From the NCBI RefSeq assembly GCF_007753265.1, contig NZ_CP036349.1, forward strand, positions 496,001 through 560,000: a stretch of 64,000 nt of DNA, in the 5' to 3' direction. The stretch comes from Botrimarina mediterranea. Its GTDB lineage: Bacteria > Planctomycetota > Planctomycetia > Pirellulales > Lacipirellulaceae. A model generated the notes under the pieces. The model was not told the DNA's origin. It saw nothing but the letters and a program-made list of their open reading frames with translations, and did no database searches. Both the position numbers and the translations under genes were made by a program. Within the stretch, counting starts at the first letter, position 1, and each line of letters opens with the position of its first letter. Positions 44,183-48,943 of the stretch are shown here, one piece after another.

Positions 44183-45085
44183 GTGTTTGCAGTCTTCGAT
44201 AATCACGCCGCCGACAAACCGAACAACGCCGACCGCGGGCCCGCGGTGCTGTTCTCGGTGCTGTGCCACTTGGCGCTGTTGCTGCTTTTGGCGTTGCTTA
44301 CCAGCGCGGGACAAGGCGACGGGCCGCTGACGCTCTTGGCGAGTTTCGACGACGGCCTCGACGCCGAAGAGAGCCTCGAAGGCGTGCCATCGGTCCAACT
44401 CGAGTCCGAACTCGAAACGCCCGCTGCCCTAGAGCTGAGCGAACTCCTCGAAGAATCGCCTGTCGAGGCGCCTCGCATTGACGTCGGCCTGCTGCCCAGC
44501 GGCGCTTCGCCCGGAGAGGTCTCGGCGAACGACTCCGGCTCGTTGTCGTCATCGGTTCCCGGCGCCCCCCAGGCCGAGTTCTTCGGCGTGGGGTCGGGCG
44601 GACGATCGTTCGTCTACGTCATCGACTGCTCAACGAGCATGATCGAGCAGGGCAAGTTCGAACACGCCAAGCAAGAACTCATGCGATCGCTCCGAGCACT
44701 TCAGCCCAGCCAGAAGTACCTGATCGTGCTGTTCAGCGATGGCGCCTACCCGATGGACGACCTCGAGCCCATCAAGGCGAACAAGCGAAACCTCGACAAG
44801 ACGGCGCAGTGGCTGTACGCGCTGGAGCCCGAAGGGGGCACCAATCCGCTGCCGGCGTTGCTCTACGCGTTGTCGCTTGAGCCCAGCGCCGTTTTCTTTC
44901 TCTCCGACGGCCGCTTCGAGCCGCTGGTAATCGAGACCATCCGCAAGGAGAACCGCCCCGGTCGCGACCAAGTTCCGATCCACACAATCTCGTTCTACAC
45001 CCGGCAGACCGAAGGGATGATGAAGTTCTTAGCACGGCTGTCGGGCGGGACGTACAAGTTCGTCGCGCCGCTTGAGCAGCCATAA
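44183..45085 (+). CDS. Membrane-anchored VWA-domain protein
   Basis: 300 aa from a GTG with no strong ribosome site. One transmembrane helix (about 22-42, AVLFSVLCHLALLLLLALLT) is followed by an acidic Glu/Leu/Ser-rich linker (about 50-130) and a von Willebrand factor A domain: VYVIDCSTSMIEQGKF with an intact MIDAS DxSxS, GGTNPLPALL with the MIDAS Thr, and VFFLSDGRFE with the MIDAS Asp. The layout predicts a periplasmic metal-dependent protein-binding domain tethered to the membrane by an acidic stalk. The partner is unknown; no AAA+ (MoxR) gene is adjacent. Confidence 0.82.
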   Translation: MFAVFDNHAADKPNNADRGPAVLFSVLCHLALLLLLALLTSAGQGDGPLTLLASFDDGLDAEESLEGVPSVQLESELETPAALELSELLEESPVEAPRIDVGLLPSGASPGEVSANDSGSLSSSVPGAPQAEFFGVGSGGRSFVYVIDCSTSMIEQGKFEHAKQELMRSLRALQPSQKYLIVLFSDGAYPMDDLEPIKANKRNLDKTAQWLYALEPEGGTNPLPALLYALSLEPSAVFFLSDGRFEPLVIETIRKENRPGRDQVPIHTISFYTRQTEGMMKFLARLSGGTYKFVAPLEQP

Positions 45086-45223: not shown

Positions 45224-45430
45224 TCACCAGGGCTTCAACTTCCACCCGAGGACGAAGCCCACGCCGAAGCACCACATCGCGGCGACGTCGGGATTCTGGC
45301 GCGCGTAAGTCGTGACGTACGTGACGAGGTCCGGCAAGGCTTCGCACGTCTCGTCTTGATTGACAACGTGGCTGCTTCTAGCTGCGTCAGAGGTTTGTTG
45401 CGGAATGGATTGCGTTGCGGCGTTGCCCAT
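45224..45430 (-). CDS. Small membrane protein with YqjD/ElaB-like tail (operon gene 6)
   Basis: 68 aa. A polar N-terminus (MGNAATQSIPQQTSDAARSS) leads into a short helix and the C-terminal pattern YARQNPDVAAMWCFGVGFVL plus GWKLKPW: a basic/polar turn with Pro, then a Gly-spaced hydrophobic helix ending in basic residues, as in the ElaB/YqjD/DUF883 tail anchors. Its ATG shares one base with the stop of the holin-like gene (TAATG). It is the last gene of the six-gene unit. Confidence 0.65.
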   Translation of the reverse strand: MGNAATQSIPQQTSDAARSSHVVNQDETCEALPDLVTYVTTYARQNPDVAAMWCFGVGFVLGWKLKPW

Positions 45431-45888
45431 TATTCAGCTCCGTTAGGATAGGGGTCACTGGAGGAAGCACTTGTGCGGACAGTGGAAGCGGGCTCGCCGG
45501 CGAGCGAACGCAGGTTGAGTTCTAAGTCACGGACCGGGCTGATGAGCGCTTTGGCCGAACGACGGGCGATGCGATAGCCGGCAATCATCGCGACGCTCAT
45601 CAGGACCATCGCGATGACCGCGACAATCGCCAGCGACGCGGCGAGCGGCAGCTCAGCGCTAGCGCTGAGTTGCAACGCGCCGGCGGCGAGCAACAGCGGA
45701 ACCGCCGCCATTAGCAGCACCCCGCCGGTTATCGTCAGCAGGACGGCCTTCTGTAGCGAGGCCGAACTGCGGCGGAACTCGACGGCGAACAGCCGGCATT
45801 GCAGCGCCCCAAGGTCCACCAGATGCGTCCACAGACGGCTCACGTCTTGCTGGAGCGAACTCGAATTCTCTGCTGGGTGACGTATCAT
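45430..45888 (-). CDS. YqjE-like / phage-holin-fold membrane protein (operon gene 5)
   Basis: 152 aa. An N-terminal amphipathic helical region (SLQQDVSRLWTHLVDLGALQ, CRLFAVEFRRSSASLQKAVL) precedes two long transmembrane helices (about 50-75, LLTITGGVLLMAAVPLLLAA, and 85-108, LAASLAIVAVIAMVLMSVAM). This matches the Phage_holin_3_6 / YqjE family; in E. coli yqjE follows yqjD. The start overlaps the previous stop codon (ATGA), and the stop overlaps the next start (TAATG). Confidence 0.75.
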   Translation of the reverse strand: MIRHPAENSSSLQQDVSRLWTHLVDLGALQCRLFAVEFRRSSASLQKAVLLTITGGVLLMAAVPLLLAAGALQLSASAELPLAASLAIVAVIAMVLMSVAMIAGYRIARRSAKALISPVRDLELNLRSLAGEPASTVRTSASSSDPYPNGAE

Positions 45889-46085
45889 CGTTTCACCAAT
45901 CGCCCGATGAGGAGTCCGACCGCCGCCGCGACGCCTAGGGTTACGAGGGGGCGCTCTTGCAAGTTGCTACGAACGAACTCCACCGCTTTCCCTTGAAGGG
46001 GATGCAGGCCGCCACTTGGTCCAGTGGACTCACGGGTTGGCCGGGTTTCAGAAGAAGCGGGGCTCGTCGGGATCACGGGGCTCAT
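45885..46085 (-). CDS. Small YqjD/ElaB-like tail-anchored protein (operon gene 4)
   Basis: 66 aa. A Ser/Thr/Pro-rich N-terminus is followed by LHPLQGKAVEFVRSNLQERP, VTLGVAAAVGLLIGRLVKR: the (R/N)xRP-hydrophobic-GxxxGxxxGR pattern of DUF883/YqjD C-terminal anchors. The ATG lies 38 bases inside the preceding gene; no in-frame ATG lies downstream, so the overlap appears real. It ends with an ATGA overlap into the holin-like gene. Confidence 0.65.
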   Translation of the reverse strand: MSPVIPTSPASSETRPTRESTGPSGGLHPLQGKAVEFVRSNLQERPLVTLGVAAAVGLLIGRLVKR

Positions 46086-46599
46086 AAAGGGAAGTATCTG
46101 GTTGAAGCCGTCCGGCCCTTTGATCAGGGGCCCGGCCGTTTGATTTCTGGTCGTTTGATTTCTGTTGATTGAGTAACGCCGACTCGATCCTTGCCGCGGC
46201 GTGGCTCAAGAGAGCCCGACCCGCGAAGGCGCCGACTGCCAGCATCACGCTCGACATGAGGCCAGCCGACTGAGCGTCGGGCTGGTCCACCTTCAGTTGT
46301 ATATTCTCATTCTTCGCGAGCTTCCTGACCTGACGGTCGCTGAGTTGGACGACACGCTTGGCGGTGGGGGCGAGCAGGAAGCCCGCCGCCGCCGCCAAGC
46401 CAACCGAAAGAAAGGGATGCGATTGCACATGCGATTTCCAATCCACGAGACGATGAGCGTCTTCACTGGTAGCCTGCGCGTCGCGATGGATCTCCCGACG
46501 GAGCTCCTTCATCGCTTGCCGAATCTGATCCGGGTCGTGACGTCCATTCGTCAGCGGCGCCTCGGGCGGCAGCCGTGAAGGTCGGTGCGAGCCATCCAT
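46048..46599 (-). CDS. Membrane protein with YqjD/ElaB-like segment (operon gene 3)
   Basis: 183 aa. A helical, charged N-terminal part (QIRQAMKELRREIHRDAQAT) leads to WKSHVQSHPFLSVGLAAAAG and FLLAP, an ElaB/YqjD-like Pro-plus-glycine-zipper membrane segment. A second hydrophobic stretch follows (SSVMLAVGAFAGRALLSHAA, about 114-133), and the tail is polar with two QKSN repeats. Its ATG overlaps the stop codon of the upstream gene (TGATG). Confidence 0.7.
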   Translation of the reverse strand: MDGSHRPSRLPPEAPLTNGRHDPDQIRQAMKELRREIHRDAQATSEDAHRLVDWKSHVQSHPFLSVGLAAAAGFLLAPTAKRVVQLSDRQVRKLAKNENIQLKVDQPDAQSAGLMSSVMLAVGAFAGRALLSHAAARIESALLNQQKSNDQKSNGRAPDQRAGRLQPDTSLYEPRDPDEPRFF

Positions 46600-46886
46600 C
46601 AATGGCCTCCAAACTGGGTTTGCAAGGCGCTGTAACCCGACTTGGCCGCCTCCTCCATCGAGTTGAGGAACTGGGAGCCGAGCCGCGTGGCGAGGTTGCC
46701 CGTCTCTCGGCGGTGTTTGGTGTAGCCGCTCTCATGCCGGCTCATGGCGGTACCGACCAAAAGGCCCGTCGCCAGACCTGCCGCCAAGCCAACACAGACG
46801 CTGGCCAGCGGCGCCTCTTCGATCCACTCCTGCGCGGTGTTTGCACAGGCGGTGTACGTGTCGCACGCTTCTTTCTGAGCGTCCAT
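46599..46886 (-). CDS. Small glycine-zipper membrane protein (operon gene 2)
   Basis: 95 aa with an excellent ribosome site (AGGAG, eight bases before ATG). MDAQKEACDTYTACANTAQE is followed by a single transmembrane helix with Gly every four residues (CVGLAAGLATGLLVGTAMSR, about 31-50), then an amphipathic C-terminal helix (LGSQFLNSMEEAAKSGYSAL). It contains four Cys in total, three in the first 31 residues. It resembles DUF883-type proteins in reverse order. It begins 46 bp downstream of the CsbD-like gene and is coupled to gene 3. Confidence 0.7.
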   Translation of the reverse strand: MDAQKEACDTYTACANTAQEWIEEAPLASVCVGLAAGLATGLLVGTAMSRHESGYTKHRRETGNLATRLGSQFLNSMEEAAKSGYSALQTQFGGH

Positions 46887-46932
46887 CGTTCTAGCTCCTA
46901 GGAGAATTTGAGCAGGGGGCGACGCGGTTCAC

Positions 46933-47352
46933 TCAGCGCGATCGCGTCGTCAGCGCGACGATGACGCCCGCAATGAGGCCGGCGCCGAAGGCAATCGCGA
47001 CCGACTCGGCGGGGCGACGGCGGACCATCCGCACCGCTTCGGTCTGACCGGCGGCGATGTTGTCGCGGACCCGTTCGACGCCGTCGCTGGCGGCGTGGCC
47101 GATCGACTCGGCGTACTGCGACGCGGTCTGCCTAGCGCGATCGAACATCGGCCCGGCTTGGTCGTTCATCTCTTTCACCCAGTTCTGGACGGACTCTTTG
47201 GCCTCGCCCGTCTTGCGCTGCAGCAAGCCGATGAACTGGTCGGTCGAGCCTTCGAACTGCAGCAGTTCGTCTTCGGAGAGCTGGCCCCACTTCTTCTTGG
47301 CTTCGCCTTTAAGTTGGTTCCAACCGCCTTGAATTTCTTGCTCGGTGACCAT
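46933..47352 (-). CDS. CsbD-like protein fused to a YqjD/ElaB-like membrane tail (operon gene 1)
   Basis: 139 aa. Residues 1-60 match the CsbD family of general-stress proteins (IQGGWNQLKGEAKKKWGQLS, followed by DELLQFEGSTDQFIGLLQRK). The middle is a charged helix (VQNWVKEMNDQAGPMFDRAR). The end VRMVRRRPAESVAIAFGAGL plus IAGVIVALTTRSR is the YqjD/ElaB-type tail: basic residues, a Pro and a Gly-spaced membrane helix. CsbD proteins are normally soluble and ~60-70 aa; this one would be held at the inner membrane. It is the first gene of the unit. Confidence 0.8.
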   Translation of the reverse strand: MVTEQEIQGGWNQLKGEAKKKWGQLSEDELLQFEGSTDQFIGLLQRKTGEAKESVQNWVKEMNDQAGPMFDRARQTASQYAESIGHAASDGVERVRDNIAAGQTEAVRMVRRRPAESVAIAFGAGLIAGVIVALTTRSR

Positions 47353-47803
47353 GATCCTTGCATCCCCAATGAATTGTGAGTCTTAATCGACGATCGGTGA
47401 GCGACGCGCTTCTGGACGAGAGGGCGTTCGCTTCGACGCAACCCACCTGGGGCAACTGCCGCGCCAATCGATAAACCCGCAGAAACCGAGGGCGACCTTT
47501 GGCTCACAGCGTCAGCGCTGAACGCGCATCGCTCGCACTGGTCGCCGTCGAGCCAGCGTTAGCGCGGGCGCCAGCGACGGCCTCGCGGAGCTAAAGAGAA
47601 CCATTAAGAAGCAAAGAGCTCGACCGAAGTCGGTCACTCCAGTATTCGGACAGGCGTGATTCCGCGAGTCTTCCCTACCAGACTAACTTGCCCTTTCCGC
47701 CAGGGTGATCCCGTTCTCGCAGCGGTGGGTACGCGACTTGCTGATGGCGGAGCGTCCAGCTTGTTCGCTGGCGTTGCACTTCGCCATCGGGAGATTCTGG
47801 ATC
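47353..47803. other. Intergenic region between divergent CsbD-like and AI-2E-type genes
   Basis: 451 bp with no gene. It should contain the promoter of the six-gene membrane-protein unit (left end) and of the permease (right end). I see short imperfect palindromes (AGCGTCAGCGCT, 47510-47521) but no convincing operator, and no copy of the dispersed repeats found elsewhere. Confidence 0.4.
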
Positions 47804-48943
47804 ATGACCGTAAGCCCCTCTGTCGCCCCCGCCGCGGAGCGTCTTGCGGACCTGACGCGGATCGACGGCGTCTCGGCGAGCCTGTCGGAAAAGGCGATGA
47901 CACGCTCCTACACAGTAATGGTGTGCCTTGTGGTGTTGACAGCTTTGGCGGTGCTGACGGCGATGTACTTCGCCCGTCCGGTGCTGCTGCCACTGACGAT
48001 GGCCGTGGTGCTGAGCCTCGTGATGCGGCCGGCGGTGACGGCGCTGCGGAGCTACGGCGTGCCGAACGTGGTCGGCGCGTCGGTGCTGTTCGCCCTGCTG
48101 CTCGGCGCCGGCGTTGTGGCGGTGACGACGCTCCGCGCCCCTGCGCAAGCCGTGCTCGCCCAAGTGCCGATGACGCTCGACTCGGTCACCGACCGGTTGC
48201 AGGGCTACCTCAAGCCGCTGAAAGACTTGCAAAGCGCCGGCGTCGAGATGGACGAGATCACCAAGTCGCCCGGCGAGCGTGATCCTCTTCCCGTGCGTCT
48301 AGAACAGCCCGCCCTAAGCGGCGAGATGCTCAACACTACCGGCGAGTACGTCGCGGGCGTCACGATCACGCTCGCGCTGTGGTACTTCCTCCTAGTGTCG
48401 GGCGATCGCTTCCTTGAGAAGACGGTCACGCTTGCGCCGACCTTCCGCGGCAAACGCGAAGTCGTCGCCACCGTGCGCGAGATCGAGGCCCGGATCGGCC
48501 GCTACCTCGGTGCGATCACTCTAGTGAACGCCGGCCTCGGCGTGGCGATCGGCCTCGGCCTGTGGGTGATCGACTTCCCCAACCCCCTGCTCTGGGGCGT
48601 CATCGCCGCGCTGCTGAACTACTTGCCATTCGCCGGACTCGCGATCGGCACAGCGCTGATGGCGGTCACGGGGATCGCGACGTTTGAGAGCCTGCCGCAC
48701 GCTCTCTTGGCGCCCCTGATCTACCTGGTGGCGAACGCCATCGAAGCGAACCTGGTGACCCCGATGCTGCTGGGCCGTTCGATCGACCTCAACCCCGTCG
48801 TGATCCTGCTGGCCGCGCTGTTGGGCGGCTGGCTGTGGGGCGTGGTGGGCATGTTCCTCGCCGTCCCTCTGCTGATCATCGCCCGGGTAATCTGCGAGAG
48901 CGTCGAGTCGTTGCACCCCGTGGCGGTCTACTTGGCAAGATAG
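47804..48943 (+). CDS. AI-2E / PerM-family permease
   Basis: 379 aa from the ATG of MTVSPSVAPAAERLADL with GGGAGA upstream. About eight transmembrane segments lie in the family arrangement: two N-terminal (TVMVCLVVLTALAVLTAMYF, VLLPLTMAVVLSLVMRPAV), a long amphipathic region (about 115-200), then a C-terminal bundle with LWGVIAALLNYLPFAGLAIG, the hallmark L.x(G/A)x.NxIPxVGP.IG-like block, and NAIEANLVTPMLLGRSIDLN plus PVVILLAALLGGWLWGVVGM. Family members export autoinducer-2 or act as Na+/H+ antiporters; many have unknown substrates. It is divergent from the stress-type small-protein unit. Confidence 0.87.
   Translation: MTVSPSVAPAAERLADLTRIDGVSASLSEKAMTRSYTVMVCLVVLTALAVLTAMYFARPVLLPLTMAVVLSLVMRPAVTALRSYGVPNVVGASVLFALLLGAGVVAVTTLRAPAQAVLAQVPMTLDSVTDRLQGYLKPLKDLQSAGVEMDEITKSPGERDPLPVRLEQPALSGEMLNTTGEYVAGVTITLALWYFLLVSGDRFLEKTVTLAPTFRGKREVVATVREIEARIGRYLGAITLVNAGLGVAIGLGLWVIDFPNPLLWGVIAALLNYLPFAGLAIGTALMAVTGIATFESLPHALLAPLIYLVANAIEANLVTPMLLGRSIDLNPVVILLAALLGGWLWGVVGMFLAVPLLIIARVICESVESLHPVAVYLAR

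What the first reader, a model, noticed from the sequence alone, without database searches (positions are those of the whole stretch)
45224..47352. Expanded YqjD/YqjE-like operon of six coupled small membrane proteins led by a CsbD-tail fusion
Seen: six consecutive minus-strand genes, mostly joined by start/stop overlaps (TGATG, a 38-base overlap, ATGA, TAATG). At least four of the products carry the same membrane segment pattern: basic or polar residues, a Pro, then a glycine-spaced hydrophobic helix ending in basic residues (e.g. LQERPLVTLGVAAAVGLL, RRRPAESVAIAFGAGL, SHPFLSVGLAAAAG, RQNPDVAAMWCFGVGFVL). One product is a two-helix YqjE/phage-holin-fold protein. Known: in E. coli, yqjD and yqjE are neighbours, and YqjD/ElaB tails anchor proteins at the inner membrane and bind ribosomes in stationary phase; CsbD is a general-stress protein. 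Inference: a planctomycete version in which several tail-anchored adaptors, one carrying CsbD, are made together, perhaps to tether ribosomes or nucleoid to the membrane under stress.
Basis: partly seen in the sequence, partly recalled or inferred. Interest (0 to 1): 0.72.

Follow-up and report, generated by a model that had tools for sequence, protein, structure and literature searches.

The report
Sigma-54 stress operon of membrane proteins
Six small genes that sit together in this planctomycete encode membrane-anchored stress proteins related to E. coli YqjD, YqjE and CsbD; the set is kept together in many planctomycetes behind a conserved sigma-54 promoter, so it is a real stress-type module whose molecular job is still unknown.

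Summary
In detail: six tightly packed minus-strand genes (A-F) lie at the stated coordinates with the stated junctions. Profile tests bear out the family claims: A is CsbD plus a DUF883_C-like tail, D passes the DUF883_C cut-off, E passes Phage_holin_3_6 (YqjE family), and profiles of A and E recover E. coli YqjD and YqjE. Gene order is conserved: of 33 stretches examined, 23 have C and F, and all 23 also have A and E; 56 of 80 named loci collected with F show A-(B)-C-D-E-F, within class Planctomycetia. F is a conserved family without a Pfam or NCBIfam name, ending in GWKLKPW (77 of 396 genomes of the order). And a sigma-54 (-24/-12) promoter precedes A: at most 2 mismatches in 16 of 23 and 28 of 47 loci, wrong spacers giving 0-4; the window's site is 47451-47466. 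Ribosome or nucleoid tethering is not supported: YqjD's N-terminal domain was not found. Best reading: a sigma-54-switched inner-membrane stress module, an enlarged relative of yqjDE. New variant of a known kind.

The parts
47451..47466 (-). Predicted sigma-54 (-24/-12) promoter TGGCGC-N5-TTGCC, 114 nt upstream of the ATG of gene A (2 mismatches to TGGCAC-N5-TTGCA)
   Evidence: conserved at a similar place in relatives:
46933..47352 (-). Gene A, 139 aa: CsbD domain (6-56), amphipathic helical linker, C-terminal glycine-zipper tail (109-133)
   Evidence: Pfam CsbD 1.1e-14, DUF883_C 0.0076, below its cut-off; 23-sequence alignment; solved CsbD relatives 1yww, 1ryk
46599..46886 (-). Gene B, 95 aa: related to the tail part of A, plus a further C-terminal part; a variable position in relatives (missing in some, a DUF1328-like gene in others)
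   Evidence: hhalign A vs B probability 98%, 0 of 30 block shuffles as high; DUF883_C 0.053
46048..46599 (-). Gene C, 183 aa: helical N-terminal part, conserved W..(Y)V..HP hydrophobic segment, then a second helical half
   Evidence: DUF883_C 0.0017 at residues 58-76, below cut-off; 22-sequence alignment; model pLDDT 69
45885..46085 (-). Gene D, 66 aa: small DUF883_C tail-anchored protein ending in KR
   Evidence: DUF883_C 6e-07, 29.4 bits vs cut-off 27; a D-type ORF in 22 of 23 loci
45430..45888 (-). Gene E, 152 aa: YqjE / Phage_holin_3_6 family, two strong hydrophobic segments
   Evidence: PF07332 3.8e-08, 33.8 bits vs cut-off 28.4; 23 of 23 homologues; its profile finds E. coli YqjE over residues 6-132
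45224..45430 (-). Gene F, 68 aa: conserved family without a name in Pfam or NCBIfam, C-terminal Y..(P)..A..G.GF..GWKLKPW
   Evidence: 10 invariant columns in 23 sequences; no family match over cut-off; 77 of 396 genomes of the order
47705..48943 (+). Divergent neighbour, probably not part of the unit: AI-2E family transporter (PF01594); similar-looking divergent genes upstream of A in a number of relatives (by eye)
   Evidence: 1e-47, window gene only

Best explanation
The six genes form one transcription unit, switched on by RNA polymerase with sigma-54 (RpoN) through an NtrC-type activator in response to an envelope, osmotic or starvation signal. The products build an inner-membrane stress module. 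A displays a CsbD domain and an amphipathic helical linker on the cytoplasmic face, held by a glycine-zipper tail. B, D and F (and the hydrophobic segment of C) bring related short glycine-zipper helices that pack with it and with the two-helix YqjE-like protein E. The module most likely protects or remodels the inner membrane and slows growth under stress, as an enlarged relative of yqjDE/PA3040-3042. Shown here: the genes, family matches, conserved order, conserved promoter element and an rpoN gene. Inferred: single transcript, use of the promoter, membrane insertion, assembly with one another, stress induction and function.
For: Of 33 stretches examined (window plus 32 fetched), 23 have C and F; all 23 also have A and E, and 22 have D (A is on the other strand in L064). 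A-(B)-C-D-E-F in 56 of 80 named loci. Family matches. Among nine E. coli proteins, YqjD is found by the A profile (8.8e-8, residues 19-98) and YqjE by the E profile (2.8e-5), E-values scaled to 5000 proteins. Tail profiles of A, B, D and F resemble one another beyond block-shuffled controls, apart from a weak A-F score. Sigma-54 site: at most 2 mismatches to TGGCAC-N5-TTGCA in 16 of 23 loci and, in a set examined only afterwards, 28 of 47 (shuffles mean 2.19, max 7); spacers of 3, 4, 6 or 7 and three strand controls give 0-5; 33 of 352 other genes in the same loci reach this against 16 of 25 upstreams labelled A (Fisher 5e-10, loci taken as independent). rpoN present. ORFs with NtrC-type activator motifs including GAFTGA lie in the fetched stretch in 7 of 22 relative loci. 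Relatives' neighbours include DUF892, DUF1328 and short CsbD genes. PA3040-3042 (yqjD/yqjE relatives) is an envelope-stress operon (PMC11302039, title and passages).
Against: No expression, localisation or interaction data. No activator gene lies near the operon in the window's genome; the nearest of 19 PF00158 matches is about 240 kb away. The degenerate sigma-54 pattern is not over-represented in this genome (39 matches, reversed control 48), so the window's own site rests on conservation. 7 of 23 and 19 of 47 loci lack a site within 2 mismatches. No shared enhancer was found. In Rhodopirellula baltica rpoN is itself down-regulated under high salt and not regulated in heat shock (PMC2754498, passages); whether that species has the operon was not tested. 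The operon is patchy: F was found in 18 genomes of the family, and at least two of the window's genus lack it. F's helix is only weakly hydrophobic. Structure models are of low confidence.
Confidence: 0.6

Rival explanations
1. Ribosome tether/hibernation platform: as with YqjD, the membrane-anchored proteins bind idle ribosomes in stationary phase and silence them.
For: The profile of A matches 80 residues of YqjD (19-98), not only the tail; D and E stand to each other as yqjD and yqjE do; YqjD associates with 30S (PMC10502375, passage).
Against: PF05957, the N-terminal DUF883 domain, is not matched by the six proteins and only weakly by 4 of 23 A homologues. The linker similarity may be generic amphipathic helix: the A homologues also match apolipoprotein profiles. 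The D homologues as aligned are only 56-79 residues long, leaving little outside the tail.
Confidence: 0.18
2. Surface protectant: A works like a membrane-anchored drying/osmotic protectant (apolipoprotein-like amphipathic helix plus CsbD) and the other proteins only spread or anchor it.
For: 23 of 23 A homologues match the apolipoprotein profile at E up to 1, best 6.4e-6; 7 of 80 loci have A and F without C, D, E between (two of the seven are near-duplicates); CsbD genes are general-stress genes (established knowledge).
Against: Amphipathic-helix profiles match many unrelated helical proteins; C, D and E are kept in most loci and would need their own role.
Confidence: 0.2
3. Lysis or prophage cassette: E is a holin and the operon is of phage origin.
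For: The Pfam name of PF07332 is a putative holin.
Against: The tested window neighbours are an AI-2E transporter, a VWA protein, an anti-sigma-like protein and an ECF sigma factor; conserved order across the class with stress-type genes beside it; in PHROGs the one strong match is an unknown-function family to residues 4-65 of A, tail-protein families match A only weakly (0.0046 and up), and no lysis family appears; E. coli YqjE is found by the profile of E.
Confidence: 0.02

Closest known systems
E. coli yqjCDEK operon (YqjD DUF883, YqjE, YqjK)
   Same: A DUF883 tail protein directly before a YqjE-family protein, tightly spaced; profiles of A, B, C and D find YqjD (8.8e-8, 4.6e-4, 6.6e-3, 9.8e-4) and that of E finds YqjE
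   Different: Here a CsbD fusion leads, there are several tail proteins and a new last gene F, none of the profiles finds YqjC or YqjK, no DUF883 N-terminal domain was found, and the promoter element is sigma-54; yqjC/yqjD transcripts depend on RpoS (PMC10746276, passages)
P. aeruginosa PA3040-3042
   Same: yqjD- and yqjE-like genes plus a third small gene in one operon, part of the envelope stress response (PMC11302039, title and passages)
   Different: Three genes; PA3042 has no recognised domains; neither CsbD nor sigma-54 is mentioned in the passages seen
CsbD / YjbJ family (solved: 1ryk, 1yww)
   Same: The N-terminal 65 residues of A
   Different: The two solved chains are 69 and 85 residues; here the domain is fused to a helical linker and a membrane tail
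Sigma-54 regulon of Planctomycetia predicted by Carrera-Reyna et al. 2025
   Same: Same sigma factor and class; MscS, UspA and chaperone groups predicted under it (PMC12316311, passages)
   Different: CsbD does not occur in that paper's main text (0 occurrences)

Membership tests
CsbD (PF05532) | Profile match over the curated cut-off | tested here: met
   A: 54.4 bits vs 40; 23 of 23 homologues match at E up to 1
ElaB/YqjD (DUF883) | C-terminal DUF883_C glycine-zipper region over cut-off | tested here: met
   D only: 29.4 vs 27 bits; A 16.3, B 13.6 and C 18.4 bits are below the cut-off, F has no match
ElaB/YqjD (DUF883) | N-terminal DUF883 domain (PF05957) | tested here: not met
   No match at E up to 5 in the six proteins; 4 of 23 A homologues, best 0.021
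ElaB/YqjD (DUF883) | Binding to the 30S subunit or ribosomes | not testable with these tools
   Needs biochemistry
YqjE / Phage_holin_3_6 (PF07332) | Profile match over the curated cut-off, two hydrophobic helices | tested here: met
   E: 33.8 vs 28.4 bits; 23 of 23 homologues match at E up to 1; two strong hydrophobic segments
Phage holin (function) | Linked endolysin or phage genes | tested here: inconclusive
   Four window neighbours tested, none phage-like; neighbours in relatives were read by eye from an output that was cut, not searched one by one
Sigma-54-dependent operon | -24/-12 element with 5-base spacer, conserved upstream | tested here: met
Sigma-54-dependent operon | RpoN encoded in the genome | tested here: met
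   PF04552 5.3e-63 at C1:374657-375130
Sigma-54-dependent operon | Cognate activator and its enhancer identified | tested here: inconclusive
   Activator-type ORFs near the operon in some relatives, none near it in the own genome; no shared enhancer
Sigma-54-dependent operon | Transcription lost without RpoN | not testable with these tools
   Needs a deletion strain and RNA data

The most novel reading that the evidence does not exclude
A sigma-54-switched membrane platform of Planctomycetia: four or five different glycine-zipper proteins (A, B, D, F and C) assemble with a YqjE hairpin into one mixed complex that stores ribosomes or reshapes the inner membrane on entry into dormancy, with F, ending in GWKLKPW, as a previously unrecognised subunit needed by the CsbD anchor protein (A-F being the minimal pair).
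Probability: 0.25. Interest if true: 0.78.

Novelty: new variant of a known kind. Interest (0 to 1): 0.58.

Why it matters
YqjD, YqjE and CsbD are widespread stress proteins whose joint role is unsettled even in E. coli. A conserved operon that joins all three kinds, adds a new small protein family and puts them behind one activator-dependent promoter gives a direct handle: one promoter to mutate, one regulator to find, one six-gene deletion to test. It also adds to the predicted role of sigma-54 in planctomycete stress responses.

Tried and rejected
Phage or lysis cassette: rejected. Ribosome tether as the main reading: lowered, because the N-terminal DUF883 domain is missing. Counting k-mers and dyads upstream of A gave nothing clear above shuffles; the sigma-54 element was seen by eye in that output, so the scoring matrix was partly shaped by those 23 loci. 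It was therefore re-tested with a plain recalled consensus on 47 loci not looked at before. The label A covers 25 called genes (more than the 23 loci, because calls starting within 130 nt of A were counted), and some control genes are themselves stress-type genes. Enhancer search: nothing above shuffles. Genome-wide count of the degenerate promoter pattern: no excess. Weak hhalign scores of about 24-27 (A-F, C-F, C-A, C-B) are not taken as homology, since A, B or C against E also exceed shuffles at 21-27. Structure models were not searched against fold libraries because mean pLDDT was 59 and 69.
Full report
What is there. The window belongs to a 5.87-Mb single-contig genome. Its genus mate G001 has a contig of the same length (2,080,178) as a Botrimarina colliarenosi record, so the host is very probably a Botrimarina (inference).

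Families. Pfam gives A: CsbD 1.1e-14 plus DUF883_C 0.0076; B: DUF883_C 0.053; C: DUF883_C 0.0017; D: DUF883_C 6e-07 (over cut-off); E: Phage_holin_3_6 3.8e-08 (over cut-off); F: only Mitoregulin at 0.089, below cut-off. Scanned as families at E up to 1, CsbD matches 23 of 23 A homologues, PF07332 23 of 23 E homologues, and DUF883_C matches 16 of 23 A, 12 of 22 C, 9 of 22 D, 2 of 12 B and 1 of 23 F. As a direct test of the claimed likeness, profiles were run on nine E. coli proteins of the yqj/yha region (E-values scaled to 5000 proteins). A finds YqjD at 8.8e-8 (residues 19-98), B at 4.6e-4, D at 9.8e-4, C at 6.6e-3, F only at 2.8, and E finds YqjE at 2.8e-5 (residues 6-132). In profile-profile comparison A-B, B-D, B-F, D-F, A-D and C-D score 34-62 against block-shuffled maxima of 18-29 (0 of 30 each); A-F, C-F, C-A and C-B score 24-27, close to the shuffled maxima; E against D or F is not above shuffles, though E against A, B or C is at 21-27. 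So A, B, D and F share a kind of glycine-zipper tail, C less clearly. hhalign also aligns A and B beyond the helix (probability 98%).

Conservation. I fetched 32 stretches around PF07332, CsbD and DUF883_C matches of relatives. With the window, 23 of 33 have matches to both C and F, and in all 23 A and E are present too; a D-type ORF is present in 22. The other ten (L065-L074) were taken for other PF07332 or DUF883_C matches and are not this operon; L070 has a marginal F match (0.026). The 23 are 21 loci from 18 genomes of the family plus one each from two other families of the order. In L064 A lies on the opposite strand, and C is broken by a frame change in one Adhaeretor copy. The F profile finds a match in 77 of 396 genomes of the order (40 of 144 genera) and in 19 of 392 across the phylum, 18 of them in the class and one weak one outside (6.5e-4). 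Among 80 named loci collected with F the order upstream is A-(B)-C-D-E-F in 56 (10 of these with an extra tail- or CsbD-type ORF), CDEF in 8, ACEF in 2, CEF in 2, DEF in 1, A and F without C-D-E in 7, F alone in 3, and none scored in 1. Some contigs are cut short, 12 of the 80 repeat family loci, and the set was collected by F, so it says nothing about operons without F. The full-length A fusion is found in 12 of 294 phylum genomes, all in the class; two more matches outside cover only the CsbD part and contain a stop. Absence matters too. F was found in 18 genomes of the family; of the 36 family genomes the other 18 have no F match listed, 4 of these not being named in the cut listing, and at least 6 further family genomes lack it, as do two of the window's genus.

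F. The 68-residue last protein has ten invariant columns in 23 sequences (Y42 P47 A51 G56 G58 F59 G62 W63 K66 W68) and ends GWKLKPW. No Pfam or NCBIfam family is matched over its cut-off (10 of 23 resemble Mitoregulin at best 0.013), and no solved structure at better than 0.86. Its helix is only weakly hydrophobic, so membrane insertion is an inference.

Promoter. While reading the upstream sequences a -24/-12 element became visible. With a matrix partly shaped by that view, 17 of 23 loci score 10.5 or more (shuffles mean 1.0, max 4). The cleaner test used the plain recalled consensus TGGCAC-N5-TTGCA on 47 further loci: 28 have at most 2 mismatches (shuffle mean 2.19, max 7) and 12 at most 1 (mean 0.18, max 3); the 23 family loci give 16 and 7. 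Spacers of 3, 4, 6 and 7 give 0-4, and the reversed, complemented and opposite-strand patterns 0-5. Other called genes in the same loci reach 2 mismatches in 33 of 352 cases, upstreams labelled A in 16 of 25. The best site falls 60-130 nt before the start codon in 17 of 23 family loci and in 27 of the 32 high-scoring named loci, 7.9 expected. The window's site, TGGCGC-GGCAG-TTGCC at 47451-47466, is 114 nt from the ATG. The genome has rpoN and 19 PF00158 matches, none near (that family also rings in all 14 control genomes, so only strong matches count). In relatives, ORFs with activator motifs including GAFTGA lie in the stretch fetched around the operon in L044, L050, L054, L055, L058, L060 and L064 (7 of 22); four of these are one genus. 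In Isosphaeraceae-type loci a regulator without GAFTGA sits between E and F. Genome-wide the degenerate pattern is not enriched, and no enhancer emerged.

Context. The divergent neighbour is an AI-2E family transporter; similar-looking genes stand upstream in a number of relatives (by eye, whose output was cut). Relatives carry DUF1328, DUF892 and short CsbD genes nearby (one DUF1328 and one DUF892 gene were profile-tested). Some of these neighbours also have sigma-54-like sites.

Reading. YqjD associates with 30S through its N terminus, and its expression depends on RpoS (PMC10502375, passages); [quoted passage not shown] PA3040-3042 belongs to the envelope stress response (PMC11302039, title and passages). 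With no N-terminal DUF883 domain found here, ribosome binding cannot be carried over. I therefore favour a sigma-54-switched membrane stress module, with protection or remodelling of the inner membrane as the likeliest role and ribosome storage as a live rival. Against stress induction by sigma-54 stands that in Rhodopirellula baltica rpoN is down-regulated under high salt and not regulated in heat shock, although the same paper proposes a sigma-54 promoter for a stress-induced thioredoxin gene (PMC2754498, passages); CsbD is not mentioned there (0 occurrences). Models of A and C (pLDDT 59 and 69) add only that the CsbD part is helical with fair confidence and that C is helical.

Print. Searches for CsbD with DUF883, planctomycete, desiccation (first 8 of 26 listed) and RpoN, for YqjE/YqjD/YqjK/operon and for YqjE/phage holin family/DUF883/Planctomycet listed, by title and start of abstract, no paper describing this operon. 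The sigma-54 regulon paper PMC12316311 does not contain CsbD in its main text. The library holds open-licence papers only.

Noticed in passing
window 50902-50114 and 49956-49006 (minus): ECF-type sigma factor followed by a zinc-finger anti-sigma-like protein, beyond the divergent AI-2E gene; no sign that they belong to the operon.
   Followed up: partly
window 44183-45085 (+): von Willebrand factor A domain protein, convergent with gene F.
   Followed up: partly
L044, L050, L060 between A and C; L064 beside A: A DUF1328-like gene (56-57 aa) stands in the place of B (the one in L044 was profile-tested; the others by eye); in L064 a similar gene lies beside the oppositely oriented A.
   Followed up: partly
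L066, L067, L069, L074: Loci of other families of the order carry a shorter three-gene set: a 105-109 aa protein (the L069 one has no Pfam match), a C-like protein and a Phage_holin_3_6 protein.
   Followed up: no
L071, L072: A separate operon with a strong Phage_holin_3_6 gene next to a roughly 410-420-aa gene that looks like the DUF3618 type (name recalled, not tested).
   Followed up: no
L050 2576, L058 8834, L054 6633, L059 3984, L062 6394, L064 4415: Small membrane-protein genes and a DUF892-looking gene near the operons also have sigma-54-like sites 99-140 nt upstream, hinting at a wider sigma-54 stress regulon.
   Followed up: partly
L001 1403-1418: The second, short CsbD gene of the own genome (C1:919409) has a 2-mismatch sigma-54-like site about 98 nt before the domain match.
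   Followed up: no
L054 3774-4159 (same locus as L096 2784-3196): Gene C is split between two reading frames in one Adhaeretor copy; decay and assembly error not told apart. In L135 and L136 the A match is likewise spread over two frames.
   Followed up: no
L163, L167, L168, L171, L172: In Isosphaeraceae-type loci the C-D-E genes and F lie about 2-3 kb apart, with an opposite-strand regulator carrying Walker A and WPGN motifs but no GAFTGA between them.
   Followed up: partly
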